A stretch of DNA of 56,758 nt. Source: a virus. Below are positions 1 through 56,758 of this stretch, one piece after another (the first letter of the stretch is position 1; every line of letters begins with the position of its first letter). Made by a program: the position numbers and the translations under genes. The notes below the pieces were generated by a model that saw only the letters and a list, made by a program, of their open reading frames with translations, did no database searches and was not told where the DNA came from. The DNA lies in IMG/VR virus record IMGVR_UViG_3300046824_000124, positions 1 to 56,758 of that record; one strand, written 5' to 3'.

Positions 1-134
1 CGACGGACTTCCAACGGACATCCTAGAGCCTTCCAACGGAATTCCACGGAATTCCACGGAAGAAGATGGAGCGCCTCGGAATTCACAACGCAAAGAAAAA
101 GAAAAAGAAAAAGAAGAGAAAGAGGGATTAACTC
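1..134. repeat. Terminal redundancy, left copy (circular contig joint)
   Basis: The first 134 bases repeat at 56631-56758. The two copies are identical except that this one carries an extra AAAAAG-type hexamer in the A-rich tract near 95-115. Because the initiator gene reads in frame through the joint, the overlap most likely marks a circular or circularly assembled genome and not a true terminal repeat. A real short direct terminal repeat is possible, but less likely inside a coding sequence. Confidence 0.93.
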
Positions 135-2783: not shown

Positions 2784-3308
2784 CTACGGGCGCGCCCTCG
2801 AAACGTCCCCGACCTGATTGAGTTCCTTGCTTCGCAGGAAGAAGGCATCGCACATCGCCACGTACTCATCGGAGAACGACTTATTTGCCACGCGGCGCAC
2901 CGTTCCATGCTGGTTCGGGAAGTCGCGGTATCCAGTGATCTTCGTTCGGTACTTCGTGTTGTCGGCTTGGAGGTCACGGAGCGCAAGGACATTCAGTGCG
3001 GCTTCCCGCTTCACGCGGAGGTAAGGCAGGAGCGCACGCAAGATTTCCTCAGCCCGCTTGTCACTTGCCTGATACCGATAGAGCGGACGGCCTTGCGCGC
3101 TATGTGGTTTCTCAGGGTAGTACCAGCCACCGAGCGTTTCCGCGATGAACTTGATTGCCGGTTCGTCAACCATGTGGATGTGAATCATCGCATGGTATCC
3201 GCGGGTCTGCCTGTCCTGCCGCTCGTTGATCGACGTGCGCTTCACGCGAATGCACGCCTCTCCGTCGAAGATGCCCGCGATGTACGCGAGGTCTGTTGAT
3301 CGTGTCAC
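2784..3308 (-). CDS. LAGLIDADG homing endonuclease
   Basis: 174 residues with a single LAGLIDADG-type motif, YIAGIFDGEAC (residues 9-19), so it would act as a homodimer cutting a long recognition site. The rest has the usual alternating basic pattern (GWYYPEKPHS, LRVKREAALNVL). GTG start with GGGAGGTG upstream. It is antisense within a rightward operon and has its own -10/-35 and terminator, making a self-contained selfish unit. No intron or intein boundary is visible. The neighbouring gene, a methyltransferase, is broken. Confidence 0.88.
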   Translation of the reverse strand: MTRSTDLAYIAGIFDGEACIRVKRTSINERQDRQTRGYHAMIHIHMVDEPAIKFIAETLGGWYYPEKPHSAQGRPLYRYQASDKRAEEILRALLPYLRVKREAALNVLALRDLQADNTKYRTKITGYRDFPNQHGTVRRVANKSFSDEYVAMCDAFFLRSKELNQVGDVSRARP

Positions 3309-4464: not shown

Positions 4465-4843
4465 CGCCCGCGACACCACCACGACCCGCACCACTCCCGC
4501 CCAACAGATGATTCGCCGCGCCGAACGCGAGCGCCATGAAACCGCCCTCGCCACCGTCCTCCATCAAGCGGGGCTGCCCGAACCAGTCCGGCAGTTTCGC
4601 TATATGCCGGGGCGCAAGTTGACGGCGGATTTCGCCTATCCCCATGTGCGGCTGCTGATCGAAGTGCAGGGCGGTTCATGGGGCGCGGGTCATAGTCGAG
4701 CAGATCGGTATGCAGAGGATCGGGTGAAGGTGGCGGAGGCGCAAATGGCGGGCTGGGTGGTGATCGAGGTAACGCCGGTGATGATCGGGGATGGACGGGC
4801 ACTTGATTTGATCGAGCGCGCGTTGAAAGGGGAGGGCGCATGA
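4454..4843 (+). CDS. PD-(D/E)XK family endonuclease (DUF559/Vsr-like)
   Basis: 129 residues. D59 in TADFAYP and E70-V-Q72 in LIEVQGG form the metal-binding core, followed by GSWGAGHSRADRYAEDRVK and a GWVVIEV strand, typical of small DUF559 or very-short-patch-repair-like nucleases. The N-terminal third is helical and Thr-rich. It overlaps the methyltransferase end by 11 bases and the next gene by ATGA, so is cotranslated with both. It could serve in recombination, repair, or as the nuclease of a restriction-like pair. Confidence 0.72.
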   Translation: MTADARDTTTTRTTPAQQMIRRAERERHETALATVLHQAGLPEPVRQFRYMPGRKLTADFAYPHVRLLIEVQGGSWGAGHSRADRYAEDRVKVAEAQMAGWVVIEVTPVMIGDGRALDLIERALKGEGA

Positions 4844-5532
4844 ACATGCCCGTGGAGGCCACTCAGAGCCACGGAGAGACGTTTTCGGGTGTACGGACGC
4901 AATCCGGGTTGCGCGGCATTTGCGCGCTCACAGCGTACGTGGCATGCGTGTACGGCGCCAACTTGGCGATCAGCACCTTCGGCATCATCCGCCTTTGGCC
5001 GCTGCCGCTTTATGCGCCCGCTGGCGTCCTCTTCGTCGGGGTGGCGTTCAGCGCGCGCGATTGGCTCCAGGAGACGTTGGGGCGCCGCTGGACAATCCTC
5101 GGCATCCTCATTGGTGCTGCCCTCTCCGCCTTCCTGTCGCCTGCGCTCGCTGTAGCGTCTGCTACGGCTTTCCTCGCCAGTGAGACCGCGGACCTCCTGG
5201 TGTACTCGCCGCTGCGCGCGAAGCATCGAGCATGGGCGGTGACGCTCTCGAATACCGTGGGGGCTGTCGTGGATTCGGCCTTGTTTCTCTGGCTGGCCTT
5301 TGGGTCGCTCGCCTTCTTCTGGGGGCAGGTGATTGGCAAGGAGTTGATGGTCGCGCCGGCGCTGATCGTCCTGGCACTCATCCGATGGCGCAAGCGGATC
5401 CGTGAAGAGCAACGGGACCTGCACGTGGTGAAGCGGATCACGGCGTTGATGGAAGCGGAGCGGGACACGGTGCTGGACGACTTGGAGCAGCAGGTGGACG
5501 CGGCGATTGCGCGGCGGAAGGCGGGGGCATAG
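4840..5532 (+). CDS. VUT-family transporter (queuosine-precursor, YhhQ-like)
   Basis: 230 residues with about five hydrophobic segments between residues 25 and 185, then a cytoplasmic basic/coiled tail. The run APAGVLFVG, RDWLQETLGRR, ASETADLLVYSPLR and SNTVGAVVDSALFLWLAFG is the pattern of VUT proteins, which import 7-deazaguanine precursors (preQ0/preQ1) in bacteria. No queuosine biosynthesis or DNA-insertion (TGT/DpdA) gene is seen in the window. Starts by ATGA overlap with the nuclease. Substrate is inferred from family. Confidence 0.82.
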   Translation: MNMPVEATQSHGETFSGVRTQSGLRGICALTAYVACVYGANLAISTFGIIRLWPLPLYAPAGVLFVGVAFSARDWLQETLGRRWTILGILIGAALSAFLSPALAVASATAFLASETADLLVYSPLRAKHRAWAVTLSNTVGAVVDSALFLWLAFGSLAFFWGQVIGKELMVAPALIVLALIRWRKRIREEQRDLHVVKRITALMEAERDTVLDDLEQQVDAAIARRKAGA

Positions 5533-5806: not shown

Positions 5807-6508
5807 ATGGCAGCACGGGCACTGATGGATGCGGGAGTGCAGAAGGAGGCGAGTGACATGGTAACGGCAACGCGGAATGGCAAGGAAACGACGGGGCAGG
5901 CAACGGGAGATGCACGGATCGTGCTGTTGCCCGCGCGCAACATCCAGCGCTGGGAGGTGCGGATCGTCGGGGAAACACCGCTCATCACGCATCGCTTCGG
6001 TGAGGACGCCATCCAGGCGATTCAGGACGCGCAGGGAGGCGCGGCGAAGACGAAGAAACCACCCCGTGACCCGCGGCGTGAGTTCGAGCAGGGGATGTAC
6101 CGATTGCCGGACGGTGGCTACGGCTTCCCGGCGGCGGGCGTGAAACTGGCAATGACAATCGCGGGTCAGCGCGAGGCGGGTGAGAAGCGCACCGAACTGA
6201 TGGGGCGCATCTCCATCGCGTCGGAACATCTGGAGATCATCAGCGACCGCCCACCGGAGATGCGCACGGACCGCGTGCGTCTCTCGGGCATGGCGGGGGT
6301 GACGAGCCTCGCCTACCGCCCCGTCTTCTGGCCGTGGAGCATGCTCGTGCCCATCCGGTTCAATGCGAACACGATCCAACTCGATCAGGTACTCAACATC
6401 CTCGACATCGCCGGGTTCTCGGTCGGCATCGGTGATTGGCGCGTGGATCGCAAAGGCACCTTCGGGCAGTTCAGCGTCGATTACGACTCAATCAGGCAGG
6501 TCGCCTAG
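5807..6508 (+). CDS. Conserved-looking phage protein of unknown function
   Basis: 233 residues from ATG 5807 (site GGGGAGGG). A second ATG at 5858, behind AGAAGGAGG, gives 216 residues and is equally credible because the first 17 residues look unstructured. The body starts WEVRIVGETPLITHRF and ends GFSVGIGDWRVDRKGTFGQFSV, an alpha/beta domain of a type frequent in phage early regions. I do not recognise a defined function. It is followed by the 541-bp hairpin-rich noncoding tract. Confidence 0.75.
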   Translation: MAARALMDAGVQKEASDMVTATRNGKETTGQATGDARIVLLPARNIQRWEVRIVGETPLITHRFGEDAIQAIQDAQGGAAKTKKPPRDPRREFEQGMYRLPDGGYGFPAAGVKLAMTIAGQREAGEKRTELMGRISIASEHLEIISDRPPEMRTDRVRLSGMAGVTSLAYRPVFWPWSMLVPIRFNANTIQLDQVLNILDIAGFSVGIGDWRVDRKGTFGQFSVDYDSIRQVA

Positions 6509-6567
6509 ACCCGCGCGAGGCGCGGCGAGGCATGGCAGTGTCATGTCGGGTCGGGCAAGTCAGGATA

Positions 6568-6756
6568 AGCCCGTGAGGGCGCAAGGTGGAGCGTGGCTTG
6601 GCATGGTTAGGTCTGTTTCTGCCTGTTACGGAATGATGGCTGGTTCCCAGCCCACCGGGGAGCAATCCCCGGATGGCTGCGATGGCAGCGCGCGGCCAGG
6701 TGAGTCGAGGCGAGGTTGGGTGAGGTTTGTTGTGGCGAGCTACGGCAGAGGACGAC
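6568..6756 (+). repeat. Hairpin array unit 1 (189 bp)
   Basis: Starts AGCCCGTGAGGGCGCAAGGT. HP2 at 6638-6652, HP3 CCGGGG-AGCAAT-CCCCGG at 6655-6672, HP4 at 6676-6689, then a linker rich in GAGG/GGTTTG. A partial earlier copy of the linker occupies 6509-6567. Confidence 0.7.
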
Positions 6757-6943
6757 AGCCCGTGAGGGCGCAGGGCCAGGCTTGTCTATGTAGCGCGTCG
6801 TTCGGTCGGGTCTGGTACGTCATGGATGGCTGGTTCTCAGCCCCCCCGCTCCTTCGGGGGCGGGATGGCTGCGAAGGCAGCGCGAGGTGGGGTCGGGTCG
6901 CGCGGGGTTTGGTTGGGCTATGTACGGCTGGGCAAGGAACAAT
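6757..6943 (+). repeat. Hairpin array unit 2 (187 bp)
   Basis: Same order as unit 1. HP2 at 6828-6842 has a C-to-T change that keeps a G-U pair. HP3 is replaced by an 8-bp stem capped by a C(TTCG)G tetraloop (6845-6864), and HP4 at 6868-6881 has loop GAAG. The linker contains a G-quadruplex-type motif (6889-6917). Confidence 0.7.
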
Positions 6944-7019
6944 AGCCCGTGAGGGCGCAAGGTAGCGCAAGGTAAGGTTAGGCGGGGCCCGTTCAGGTCG
7001 GGTTTTGCCCGGTTTTGAT
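6944..7019 (+). repeat. Hairpin array unit 3, partial
   Basis: HP1 and the GCAAGGT that follows are intact (6944-6963). The sequence then degenerates into GGTAAGG/TCGGGTTTT stretches and runs into the leader of the next gene (AAGGAG at 7037-7042). HP2-HP4 are missing. Confidence 0.6.
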
Positions 7020-7049
7020 TCGTCGTCAAGTCATCAAGGAGCAGCAACG

Positions 7050-7562
7050 ATGGTCGTCACGGTTCGGTTCCGTCCCGGTACACCCTTCAAGACCGCGGAA
7101 GCGCCGAAGGTCGAGCGCGCACTGGAGCGCGTTGCCCGCCCCGATGGCATGTTCGAACCGCAGGACGTGGTAGACGCCGCGCGCCCTGCATCCTCCGTCC
7201 TGCATCCGTACTTCGAGTGGGACGACAGCGAAGCGGCGCGTGAATATCGGTTGTGGCAGGCGCGTAATCTGACGCGGGCCGTCGAGGTGCGTGTCCTCAC
7301 CGCCGACAACGCTGAACACTGGGTGCCGAAGTTCAACAGCGTCATGGTGCAGACCGACGCCGGCGTCAATGAGCGGCGCTATGCCACCCTCGCGGTCGTC
7401 AAGCAGCAACCGGACCTGATCGCGCAGGTGCAGCAACGCCTTGAGGACGAACTACTGGCCTGCAAGCGGCGCTATGAGGCTCACGCGCACATCCCTGAGT
7501 TCCATCAGCGGTTCGCGGAAGTCTTCGACGCGGTGGATCGTCTCGCGTTGGTCGCTGACTAG
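7050..7562 (+). CDS. Hypothetical phage protein (170 aa)
   Basis: ATG 7050 follows CAAGGAGCAGCAACG; the longer open frame from 7005 has no site. Features: FRPGTPFKT, a HPYFEWDDSEAAREYRLWQARNL block at about residues 51-73, then a beta-rich part and a long C-terminal helix. The FEWDDSxAAxxYRxxQAR pattern recurs in hypothetical proteins of many phages. Role unknown; its early-operon position suggests DNA metabolism or host takeover. Confidence 0.75.
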   Translation: MVVTVRFRPGTPFKTAEAPKVERALERVARPDGMFEPQDVVDAARPASSVLHPYFEWDDSEAAREYRLWQARNLTRAVEVRVLTADNAEHWVPKFNSVMVQTDAGVNERRYATLAVVKQQPDLIAQVQQRLEDELLACKRRYEAHAHIPEFHQRFAEVFDAVDRLALVAD

Positions 7563-9395: not shown

Positions 9396-10637
9396 GTGGC
9401 AATCTCGCACCTGAAACACCTCAAGCCCGATACCCGTAATGCACGCCGCCACAATCCGCGCAACATCGGCATGGTGGAGACGAGCCTGCAAACCGATGGC
9501 TTCGGCCGCTCCATCCTCCTCGACCGCGACGGCAATATCCTCGCGGGCAATGGCGTCACTGAGGCCGCGGGAAATGTCGGGCTTGAAGACGTGATTGTCG
9601 TGCCGAGCGATGGTACGAAGGTGATCGCCATCCAGCGCACCGATGTTGAGGCGGGGAGTGAGCGGGCCGTGCGCCTCGCCATCGCGGACAACCGGACACA
9701 GGAACTCAGCGACTTCGATCCTGCCGTGATCGCGGCCCTGAGTGAAGAAGTCGATCTGTCGGACTTCTGGCATGAAGATGAGATGGACGCGCTGCTGGAG
9801 GGGATCACCGAGGATGCGGAGCCTGCTGCCGATCCAGGCGCGCAGATGGATCGCGCCGAGGAACTCAACCAGAAGTGGCAGGTGGCGCGCGGCGACCTGT
9901 GGGAGATCGGCACGCATCGGCTTCTGTGCGGTGATAGCACGGATGCGGGCGATGTGGCGCGGTTGATGGGCAGTGAGCGGGCCGATTTGGTCTTTACCGA
10001 CCCACCGTATGGCGTGTCCTATCAGATGAAGATGACGACTGAGCGAGCGATTGCCTTACACCGCCGCAAGGATCACATGGAGGTGCCGAACGACGATCTG
10101 GGTGATGAAGGAACCCGTGCGTTTATCGCGGCCGCGGTTGCGGTTGCGCCGATGCGACCGGGCACACCGTTCTATCTGTGTTCCCCGCCGGGGAACACAG
10201 AGACTTCATTCCGATTGGCGCTCGCGGATGCCGGCTTGCAACTCAGGCAGTGTATTGTCTGGGCGAAGAACATTTTCGTCATGGGCCGGCAAGATTACCA
10301 TTGGCGGCATGAGTCCATTCTTTATGGATGGAAGGACGGTGCGGCGCACTTCTTCGCGGAAGATCGCACACAAGATACGGTCTGGGAAATCAATCGCCCG
10401 CGCATTTCTGAGGAGCATCCGACGATGAAGCCGGTTGACCTCGTTGCTCGCGCCATCACCAACAGCAGTCGCGGGGGAGACGTCGTCTATGACGGCTTCG
10501 GCGGGAGCGGCACGACGCTGGTAGCGTGCGAACAGGCCGGTCGCCTCGGTCGCATGTTGGAGTTGGAGCCGAAGTATTGCGCCGTGATCCTCGAACGCAT
10601 GGCAGGAATGGGCATCACGCCGCGACGGGTAGATTGA
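9396..10637 (+). CDS. ParB/Srx-domain fused to DNA methyltransferase
   Basis: 413 residues from GTG 9396 (site TATGGGGGC); the open frame upstream has no start signal. Residues 1-120 are ParB-like (LKPDTRNARRHN, DGFGRSILLDRDGNILAGNG, IADNRTQELSDFD). Then a beta-class methyltransferase: catalytic DPPYG at 202-206, AdoMet motif FGGSG at 368-372, TMKPVDLVARAI between. Such fusions usually precede terminase genes in phages and modify phage DNA, either against restriction or to mark packaging substrates. Start of the late operon. Confidence 0.9.
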   Translation: MAISHLKHLKPDTRNARRHNPRNIGMVETSLQTDGFGRSILLDRDGNILAGNGVTEAAGNVGLEDVIVVPSDGTKVIAIQRTDVEAGSERAVRLAIADNRTQELSDFDPAVIAALSEEVDLSDFWHEDEMDALLEGITEDAEPAADPGAQMDRAEELNQKWQVARGDLWEIGTHRLLCGDSTDAGDVARLMGSERADLVFTDPPYGVSYQMKMTTERAIALHRRKDHMEVPNDDLGDEGTRAFIAAAVAVAPMRPGTPFYLCSPPGNTETSFRLALADAGLQLRQCIVWAKNIFVMGRQDYHWRHESILYGWKDGAAHFFAEDRTQDTVWEINRPRISEEHPTMKPVDLVARAITNSSRGGDVVYDGFGGSGTTLVACEQAGRLGRMLELEPKYCAVILERMAGMGITPRRVD

Positions 10638-56262: not shown

Positions 56263-56758
56263 ATGGCGTTCTACACCCCGTCGCATAGCGACCTCGCCCG
56301 ACATCGGAAGACGAAACGGTTCATGCGTGCCCTCGACGTTGGCACGGTGGCCGCAATCGGGCATCTCCACCTCTTCTGGCACTGGGTCTTAGAGTTCGCC
56401 CCTTCCGGCGACATCTCCTTCGACCGCTTCACCTGCGAGGACATCGCGGACGGCGCACTCTGGGAGGGTGACGCCCTCCCATTCCTCGAAGCACTCGTAA
56501 CCTCCGGGTTCGTGGATCGTGAGGCTGATCGCCTTGCGGTTCACGAGTGGGATACCTACGGCGGCAAGTTCCAGAAGAAGCTCGCCTACGACCGGGAACG
56601 CAAGCGTGCCAAGGGGAAATCCGCTGACGGCGACGGACTTCCAACGGACATCCTAGAGCCTTCCAACGGAATTCCACGGAATTCCACGGAAGAAGATGGA
56701 GCGCCTCGGAATTCACAACGCAAAGAAAAAGAAAAAGAAGAGAAAGAGGGATTAACTC
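56263..56758 (+). CDS. Replication initiator (replisome organiser), N-terminal part
   Basis: ATG 56263; the frame is open to the window end and continues at base 2 of the left copy. The first about 110 residues (YTPSHSDLARHRKTKRFMRAL, AIGHLHLFWHWVLEFAPSG, DRLAVHEWDTYGGKFQKKLAYDRERKRAK) match the winged-helix N-terminal domain of phage replisome organisers related to DnaD/lambda O. Binds the origin and recruits the DnaC-like loader encoded next. Confidence 0.8.
   Translation, partial: MAFYTPSHSDLARHRKTKRFMRALDVGTVAAIGHLHLFWHWVLEFAPSGDISFDRFTCEDIADGALWEGDALPFLEALVTSGFVDREADRLAVHEWDTYGGKFQKKLAYDRERKRAKGKSADGDGLPTDILEPSNGIPRNSTEEDGAPRNSQRKEKEKEEKEGLT
56631..56758. repeat. Terminal redundancy, right copy
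   Basis: Identical to bases 1-134 except that one hexamer (AAAAAG) of the A-rich tract is missing, so 128 bases long. The coding frame is unaffected: two residues (KE) fewer. Confidence 0.93.

What the first reader, a model, noticed from the sequence alone, without database searches (positions are those of the whole stretch)
6509..7049. Tandem array of hairpin units in a 541-bp gene-free tract of the early operon
Three copies of GCCC-GTGA-GGGC (6569, 6758, 6945) are spaced 189 and 187 bases apart. Two full units each add three further hairpins in the same order. Linkers are diverged and C-poor, so the copies are old, yet the stems persist. No gene explains it. It could be a structured RNA, a decoy RNA, an origin or packaging element, or a recombination site. 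Seen directly: the stems and spacing. Inferred: an RNA function.
Basis: partly seen in the sequence, partly recalled or inferred. Interest (0 to 1): 0.82.

Follow-up and report, generated by a model that had tools for sequence, protein, structure and literature searches.

The report
VIPR guide-RNA array with hairpin tails
The gene-free stretch of this phage is an array of about six guide RNAs for VIPR, a recently reported CRISPR-like phage weapon in which a protein uses five-letter repeats to find rival DNA, and here the guides are set off by two alternating kinds of RNA hairpin that relatives lack.

Summary
The hairpins and their spacing are real, but they are punctuation. The "diverged, C-poor linkers" are the informative part: six runs of 10-11 pentamers GGY-NN (pyrimidine at position 3 in 61 of 62; NN composition flat), the only such tracts in the 56.7-kb window. 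They lie on the same strand directly after gene 5858-6508, whose product is a Cas7/Csm3-like RAMP and a homologue of SUSP1 Vipr (PDB 36pp). This is a VIPR locus (Viral Interference Programmable Repeat; preprint PMC13142463): Vipr, a guide-RNA (vrRNA) array, and an accessory gene (7050-7562). Most likely the array is transcribed, cut into roughly 80-110-nt vrRNAs, bound by Vipr, and used to repress rival mobile DNA through NN dinucleotides read with a 1-nt skip. Expression, processing and targets of this array are inferred; no convincing target was found. Unlike nearly all held members of its Vipr/accessory clade, whose guides abut at a bare GGCA|GGC junction, this array is punctuated by alternating tails: a 4-bp GUGA-tetraloop hairpin and a three-hairpin element with compensatory changes. 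New variant of a known kind. In passing: three guides in relatives match a conserved motif of other VIPRs' vipr genes.

The parts
5858..6508 (+). vipr gene: RAMP (Cas7/Csm3-like) protein, phrog_4652; ATG at 5858 preceded by AAGGAGG
   Evidence: phrog_4652 E 4e-23; matches SUSP1 Vipr PDB 36pp alone E 1e-6 and by profile E 4.5e-41; AlphaFold2 pLDDT 93.8; Foldseek best Csm3, E 1.8e-7, prob 1.00; VIA Z 12.9
6519..6568 (+). guide tract A, 10 GGY-NN pentamers; NN = GC GA AT AG CA CG CG AA AG AA
   Evidence: pentamer HMM, phase table
6569..6580 (+). hairpin type 1 (GCCC-GUGA-GGGC, GNRA tetraloop), copy 1
6585..6634 (+). guide tract B, 10 pentamers; NN = GG GT TT AT TA CT TC CT AC AT
6635..6692 (+). 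three-hairpin tail (type 2), copy 1: 6638-6652, 6655-6672 (GCAA loop), 6676-6689
6694..6748 (+). guide tract C, 11 pentamers; NN = CA GA GA GA TG GA TT GT GA AC AG
6758..6769 (+). hairpin type 1, copy 2
6774..6823 (+). guide tract D, 10 pentamers; NN = CA TT TA AG GT TC CG CT AC AT
6825..6884 (+). three-hairpin tail (type 2), copy 2: 6828-6842, 6845-6864 (UUCG loop), 6868-6881
6886..6935 (+). guide tract E, 10 pentamers; NN = GG CG CG GG TT TG TA AC TG AA
6945..6956 (+). hairpin type 1, copy 3
6961..7015 (+). guide tract F, 11 pentamers (NN = AG AA AA TA GG CC CA CG TT CC TT); its second half overlaps a terminator-like hairpin 6981-7009, so it may be a degenerate or terminal unit
7050..7562 (+). 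candidate vap (VIPR accessory) gene, phrog_15946; predicted fold weakly winged-helix-like (PadR/LmrR), so possibly DNA-binding
   Evidence: phrog_15946 E 7e-20; homologues in 48 of 53 genome vipr loci and in about 25 pattern-found viral loci, mostly next to vipr; AF2 pLDDT 93.9; VIA Z 5-6

Best explanation
A VIPR locus. Vipr (5858-6508) is a single-domain RAMP. The intergenic tract 6509-7049 is transcribed with the operon and carries about six vrRNAs, each a variable tract of 10-11 GGY-NN pentamers. Vipr subunits would bind the repeated GGY and present the NN pairs, which together read a DNA target of form NNxNNxNN... with one skipped base per step, blocking transcription of rival phages, satellites or prophages. 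The hairpins between tracts (the GUGA hairpin and the three-hairpin element, alternating) most likely act as 3' tails and processing or boundary marks of the individual vrRNAs; a terminator-like hairpin ends the array. The gene at 7050-7562 is the accessory (vap) protein. Shown here: homology and fold of Vipr, pentamer code, uniqueness in the genome, strand and gene linkage, clade membership, stem conservation between units. Inferred: transcription, cutting into units, RNP assembly, target repression, tail function.
For: The pentamer HMM finds tracts only at 6515-7017 (+) in 56.7 kb, none in Markov controls. Phase 3 is pyrimidine in 61/62, phases 1 and 2 are G in 51 and 52 of 62, NN is flat 37/24/32/31. 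Homology of the upstream gene to SUSP1 Vipr and Csm3 fold. Positive control: the same detector finds exactly the four SUSP1 vrRNA tracts. Array-first test: of 120 viral contigs pulled by GGCNN x8 alone, 74 encode a Vipr homologue, 73 of 74 on the same strand. Gene-first test: 51 of 53 bacterial-genome Vipr relatives have a same-strand tract, none on the opposite strand. Window Vipr sits in a 100/100 clade holding all 29 vap-bearing rows. In that clade two guides (L185, L223) match the conserved vipr motif under the 1-nt skip rule, with 3 and 6 mismatches to their own vipr genes. Mechanism: PMC13142463.
Against: No convincing target was found for any guide of this window. Some pentamers depart from GGY (TGT, GTC, CGC, GCT), so some guides could be decaying or use a looser consensus. 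No RNA data. No relative shares the hairpin tails, so their function rests on two or three copies. The source paper is a preprint whose supplement (type list, array figures) could not be read.
Confidence: 0.94

Rival explanations
1. A degenerate, no longer functional VIPR array: real by descent, but guides decayed.
For: Pentamers are looser than in most relatives (about 18% lack G at position 1, 16% at position 2); tract F overlaps a terminator-like hairpin; no target found.
Against: Pyrimidine is kept in 61 of 62 third positions and the reading phase is unbroken within each guide; the two tails are largely identical with compensatory changes in the middle stem; vipr is intact with an ideal ribosome-binding site. 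Deviating pentamers also occur in experimentally shown SUSP1 vrRNAs (TGTAT, AGTGT).
Confidence: 0.12
2. A structured non-coding RNA unrelated to guides (regulatory, decoy or packaging RNA).
For: Stable repeated hairpins; no Rfam family.
Against: Does not explain the pentamer code, its adjacency to a RAMP gene, or the same code beside homologous genes in over 120 other loci.
Confidence: 0.03
3. A protein-coding pentamer repeat (ORF 6363-6965, 200 aa, overlapping vipr in another frame).
For: An open frame crosses most of the array.
Against: Fixed letters follow a 5-nt, not 3-nt, period; the one-base phase shifts between guides would break any reading frame that followed the repeat.
Confidence: 0.01

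Closest known systems
VIPR of Escherichia phage SUSP1 (type II, PMC13142463; PDB 36pp)
   Same: Homologous Vipr; GGY-NN tracts on the strand of the gene; constant 3' tail after each variable tract; phage-encoded.
   Different: SUSP1 vap1 shows no resemblance noted here to the gene at 7050 (not compared directly); SUSP1 has three tracts downstream and one upstream with its own tails; the window has about six tracts with two alternating tail kinds and lies in a different Vipr clade.
VIPR arrays of the window's own Vipr/vap clade (e.g. Mycobacterium phages Saal and Quico, Gordonia phages, L036, L092; most of L185-L237)
   Same: Same Vipr clade (100/100) and same accessory gene family; guides next to vipr on the same strand.
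   Different: They use one continuous tract with GGCA|GGC 4-nt slip junctions (guide lengths 5n-1 nt) and no hairpin tails; the window has hairpins at every boundary.
Pseudomonas phage vB_Pae_LESphi2 VIPR
   Same: Three GGY-NN tracts separated by 59-61-nt structured spacers that include a GGCUG...CAGC hairpin.
   Different: Other Vipr clade, no gene-7050-like vap found, array upstream of vipr, different tail sequence, no GUGA hairpin.
Class 1 CRISPR arrays
   Same: RAMP protein, array of variable guides separated by hairpin-bearing constant elements.
   Different: Guide is a gapped pentamer code rather than a contiguous spacer; constant elements are 12 and about 58 nt, of two kinds; only one RAMP gene beside the array.

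Membership tests
VIPR | Vipr protein: RAMP/RRM fold related to SUSP1 Vipr | tested here: met
   PDB 36pp E 1e-6 alone, 4.5e-41 by profile; Csm3 fold Z 12.9
VIPR | Adjacent tandem repeats of GGY/NN (YNNGG), 9-16 per guide | tested here: met
   Six tracts of 10-11 pentamers
VIPR | NN positions hypervariable while GGY is fixed | tested here: met
   Phase composition, NN flat; guides differ between units while tails are constant
VIPR | Invariable structured 3' tail after the variable tract | tested here: met
   Two alternating constant elements; compensatory changes in one stem. Pseudoknot not tested; that they are tails of processed RNAs is inferred
VIPR | vipr-accessory (vap) gene, DNA-interacting | tested here: inconclusive
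   Gene 7050-7562 co-occurs with vipr in 48 of 53 genome loci; DNA-binding fold only weakly suggested (Z 5-6); which vap number not checkable
VIPR | Discrete vrRNA transcripts of about 100 nt bound by Vipr | not testable with these tools
   No RNA data
VIPR | Targets matched by NN with a 1-nt skip | tested here: inconclusive
   No convincing target for the window; in the clade, L185 and L223 guides fit the rule
CRISPR-Cas class 1 | Constant repeats separating contiguous spacers | tested here: not met
   Variable parts are GGY-NN pentamers, not contiguous spacers
Known Rfam structured RNA | Match at or above a family's gathering score | tested here: not met
   No match at gathering score; weak hits far below cut-offs

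The most novel reading that the evidence does not exclude
A VIPR array that has independently become CRISPR-array-like: a polycistronic guide array in which two alternating hairpin types replace the bare slip junctions of its clade, one (GUGA hairpin) acting as a cut or boundary repeat and the other as a Vipr-anchoring tail, so that two structurally different vrRNA classes are made from one transcript.
Probability: 0.35. Interest if true: 0.75.

Novelty: new variant of a known kind. Interest (0 to 1): 0.62.

Why it matters
VIPR was described only in 2026 as a RAMP system thought to predate CRISPR. An array whose clade otherwise uses tail-less, directly abutting guides but which carries alternating hairpin elements shows that guide-array punctuation is evolvable within one Vipr clade, the step one would want to see on a path towards CRISPR repeats. 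The locus makes a direct test possible: how are vrRNA units cut, and can one Vipr use two tails? The clade survey also gives an independent check of the 1-nt skip rule and evidence of VIPR-against-VIPR targeting.

Tried and rejected
Rfam: no family. DNA similarity in phages: only short chance-level matches, though one beside the gene homologue in Saal gave the lead. Vipr alone in viral contigs: none by exact peptide patterns. Hairpin pattern GATGGCTGGTTCNCAGCCC in viral contigs: two hits in unrelated contigs without pentamer tracts. Covariance model of the three-hairpin tail over 141 sources: only the window's two copies are convincing. Targets: seeds of 8 NN from guides B-E in viral contigs gave 3-27 hits, about chance; the best (guide C, 21 of 22, L170 and L176, which share an identical 9.9-kb stretch) lies in a 57-aa ORF and is not convincing; other guide C hits lie in phage structural-type genes of one family. 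A first skip-rule test was biased because its database held loci fetched with skip-1 patterns and counted one target motif many times; redone without them, one guide stands out (L223, 10 NN perfect, skip 1) while other rules reach at most 8. Host identification through the terminase failed. A Pfam, NCBIfam or defence label for Vipr or the accessory gene: none.

Full report
Observation. The 16-mer AGCCCGTGAGGGCGCA occurs three times exactly; simulated sequence of the same composition never repeats a word longer than 11 nt three times. The middle hairpin of the triple element is CCGGGGA-GCAA-UCCCCGG in one unit and CCCGCUCC-UUCG-GGGGCGGG in the other: paired in both, with four pairs changed on both sides and a different stable tetraloop. 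The other stems do not vary. Folding energy of the whole tract is not unusual (z -1.5), so energy alone would not have shown the structure.

What the linkers are. Read from the hairpins outward, the linkers are pentamers. A hidden Markov model of GGY-NN finds three tracts in the whole window on both strands, all at 6515-7017 on the plus strand; six simulated genomes gave none. Split at the hairpins they are six runs of 10-11 pentamers: position 3 is a pyrimidine in 61 of 62, positions 1 and 2 are G in 51 and 52 of 62, and the last two positions are flat in composition (37 A, 24 C, 32 G, 31 T). The phase of each run was chosen by eye, but five phases in six runs is a small choice against p about 3e-21 for position 3. 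Between units the tails stay constant and the NNs change. The linkers are therefore variable guides on a fixed frame, not decayed spacers.

The gene beside it. The upstream gene (phrog_4652) has homologues in Mycobacterium, Gordonia and Pseudomonas phages with long GGCNN arrays beside them. A literature search for pentanucleotide repeats in phages found the VIPR preprint (PMC13142463): a RAMP protein, Vipr, with guide RNAs of 9-16 YNNGG repeats plus a constant tail, recognising double-stranded DNA through NN dinucleotides with a 1-nt skip and repressing competing elements. The window protein alone matches the solved SUSP1 Vipr (36pp) at E 1e-6, a 60-sequence profile at 4.5e-41, and its AlphaFold2 model (pLDDT 93.8) has the Csm3/Cas7 fold (Foldseek E 1.8e-7; Z 12.9 over 157 residues). 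On SUSP1 itself the detector recovers exactly four tracts, one upstream and three downstream, as published.

Linkage tested both ways. From the array side: 120 viral contigs retrieved only for eight consecutive GGCNN include 74 with a Vipr homologue, 73 with array and gene on one strand, median distance 70 nt. From the gene side: of 53 Vipr relatives in bacterial genomes, from Alphaproteobacteria to Lachnospiraceae, 51 have a tract on the gene's strand and none on the other. The gene at 7050-7562 has homologues in 48 of these 53 loci and in about 25 of the pattern-found viral loci, so it is best read as the accessory (vap) gene; its predicted fold has a weak winged-helix resemblance (Z 5-6).

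How this array differs. A maximum-likelihood tree puts the window in a 34-row clade (100/100) that holds all 29 rows with this vap. In that clade guides normally abut in one continuous tract at a GGCA|GGC slip, giving guide lengths of mostly 34, 39, 44, 49, 54, 59 or 64 nt (5n-1). Among held vap-bearing loci the window is the only one with repeated hairpin spacers; L206 has one lone 12-bp hairpin, and L070 and L234 have single weakly folding gaps. Structured spacers do occur in other Vipr clades (LESphi2, L009, L069, L100, L018). A covariance model of the window's triple hairpin finds no other convincing member in 141 sources. So the tail set is private to this phage as far as searched, and its alternation (guide, GUGA hairpin, guide, triple hairpin) is a new arrangement for the clade. 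Whether the preprint's supplement lists it could not be checked.

Mechanism. Most likely the operon transcript is cut near the hairpins into vrRNAs of about 80 nt (guide plus GUGA hairpin) and about 110 nt (guide plus triple hairpin), Vipr coats the GGY frame, and the complex represses DNA matching the NNs. Cutting, binding and targets are inferred. No target was found for this window: seeds from guides B-E gave chance-level hits, and no held sequence matched more than six consecutive NNs once those fetched loci were set aside.

Does the clade follow the skip rule? With 653 guides against 3.2 Mb (both strands), without the loci fetched by guide patterns, the best perfect run is 10 NNs under the 1-nt skip and 8, 7 and 8 under 0, 2 and 3. 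The outlier, a guide in L223, spells GMGTADLRYR, a conserved motif of vipr genes, in frame with the wobble base skipped; a guide in L185 spells the neighbouring EDMVRVGM (16 of 16 in several other viprs). Each has mismatches to its own vipr (6 of 22 and 3 of 16), partly by switching arginine from CGN to AGR. A near-copy of the L223 guide in L224 has CT AG where L223 has TT CG, readable as the same Leu-Arg in other codons. This agrees with the preprint's statement that some vrRNAs target other VIPRs; the vipr-rich database favours finding such cases, so it is support from few events, not a survey.

Verdict. A real feature, now explained: a VIPR vrRNA array, new variant by its alternating hairpin punctuation.

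Noticed in passing
[quoted passage not shown] the L185 and L223 guides mismatch their own vipr genes partly through CGN-to-AGR arginine codons. The window's own Vipr is divergent at exactly this motif (RTDRVRLSGMAGVTSLAYR).
   Followed up: partly
vap-clade loci, e.g. L036:6300-6610, L092:8570-9250: Guides abut at a GGCA|GGC slip, giving lengths of 5n-1 nt; 141 of about 160 slips are of this one type.
   Followed up: partly
L003:3884-4030 (Mycobacterium phage Saal gp51): The annotated vipr start (TTG) lies at the end of the vrRNA array; the Quico homologue starts well downstream, so Saal gp51 is probably over-extended.
   Followed up: no
window 3-60 and 56633-56690: The same tandem-repeat array stands at both ends of the window, so the record probably has direct terminal repeats and is a complete phage genome.
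   Followed up: no
window 9432-10637: ParB-like N-terminal part joined to an N6/N4 DNA methyltransferase.
   Followed up: no
window 2784-3308 (-): Homing-endonuclease-like gene (PADLOC HEase, E 8e-6) in the early region on the opposite strand.
   Followed up: no
window 4840-5532: Queuosine-precursor transporter-like gene (Pfam Vut_1; below NCBIfam cut-off) just upstream of vipr.
   Followed up: no
L206:3766-3826: A lone perfect 12-bp inverted repeat interrupts the vrRNA array of a Muribaculaceae locus.
   Followed up: no
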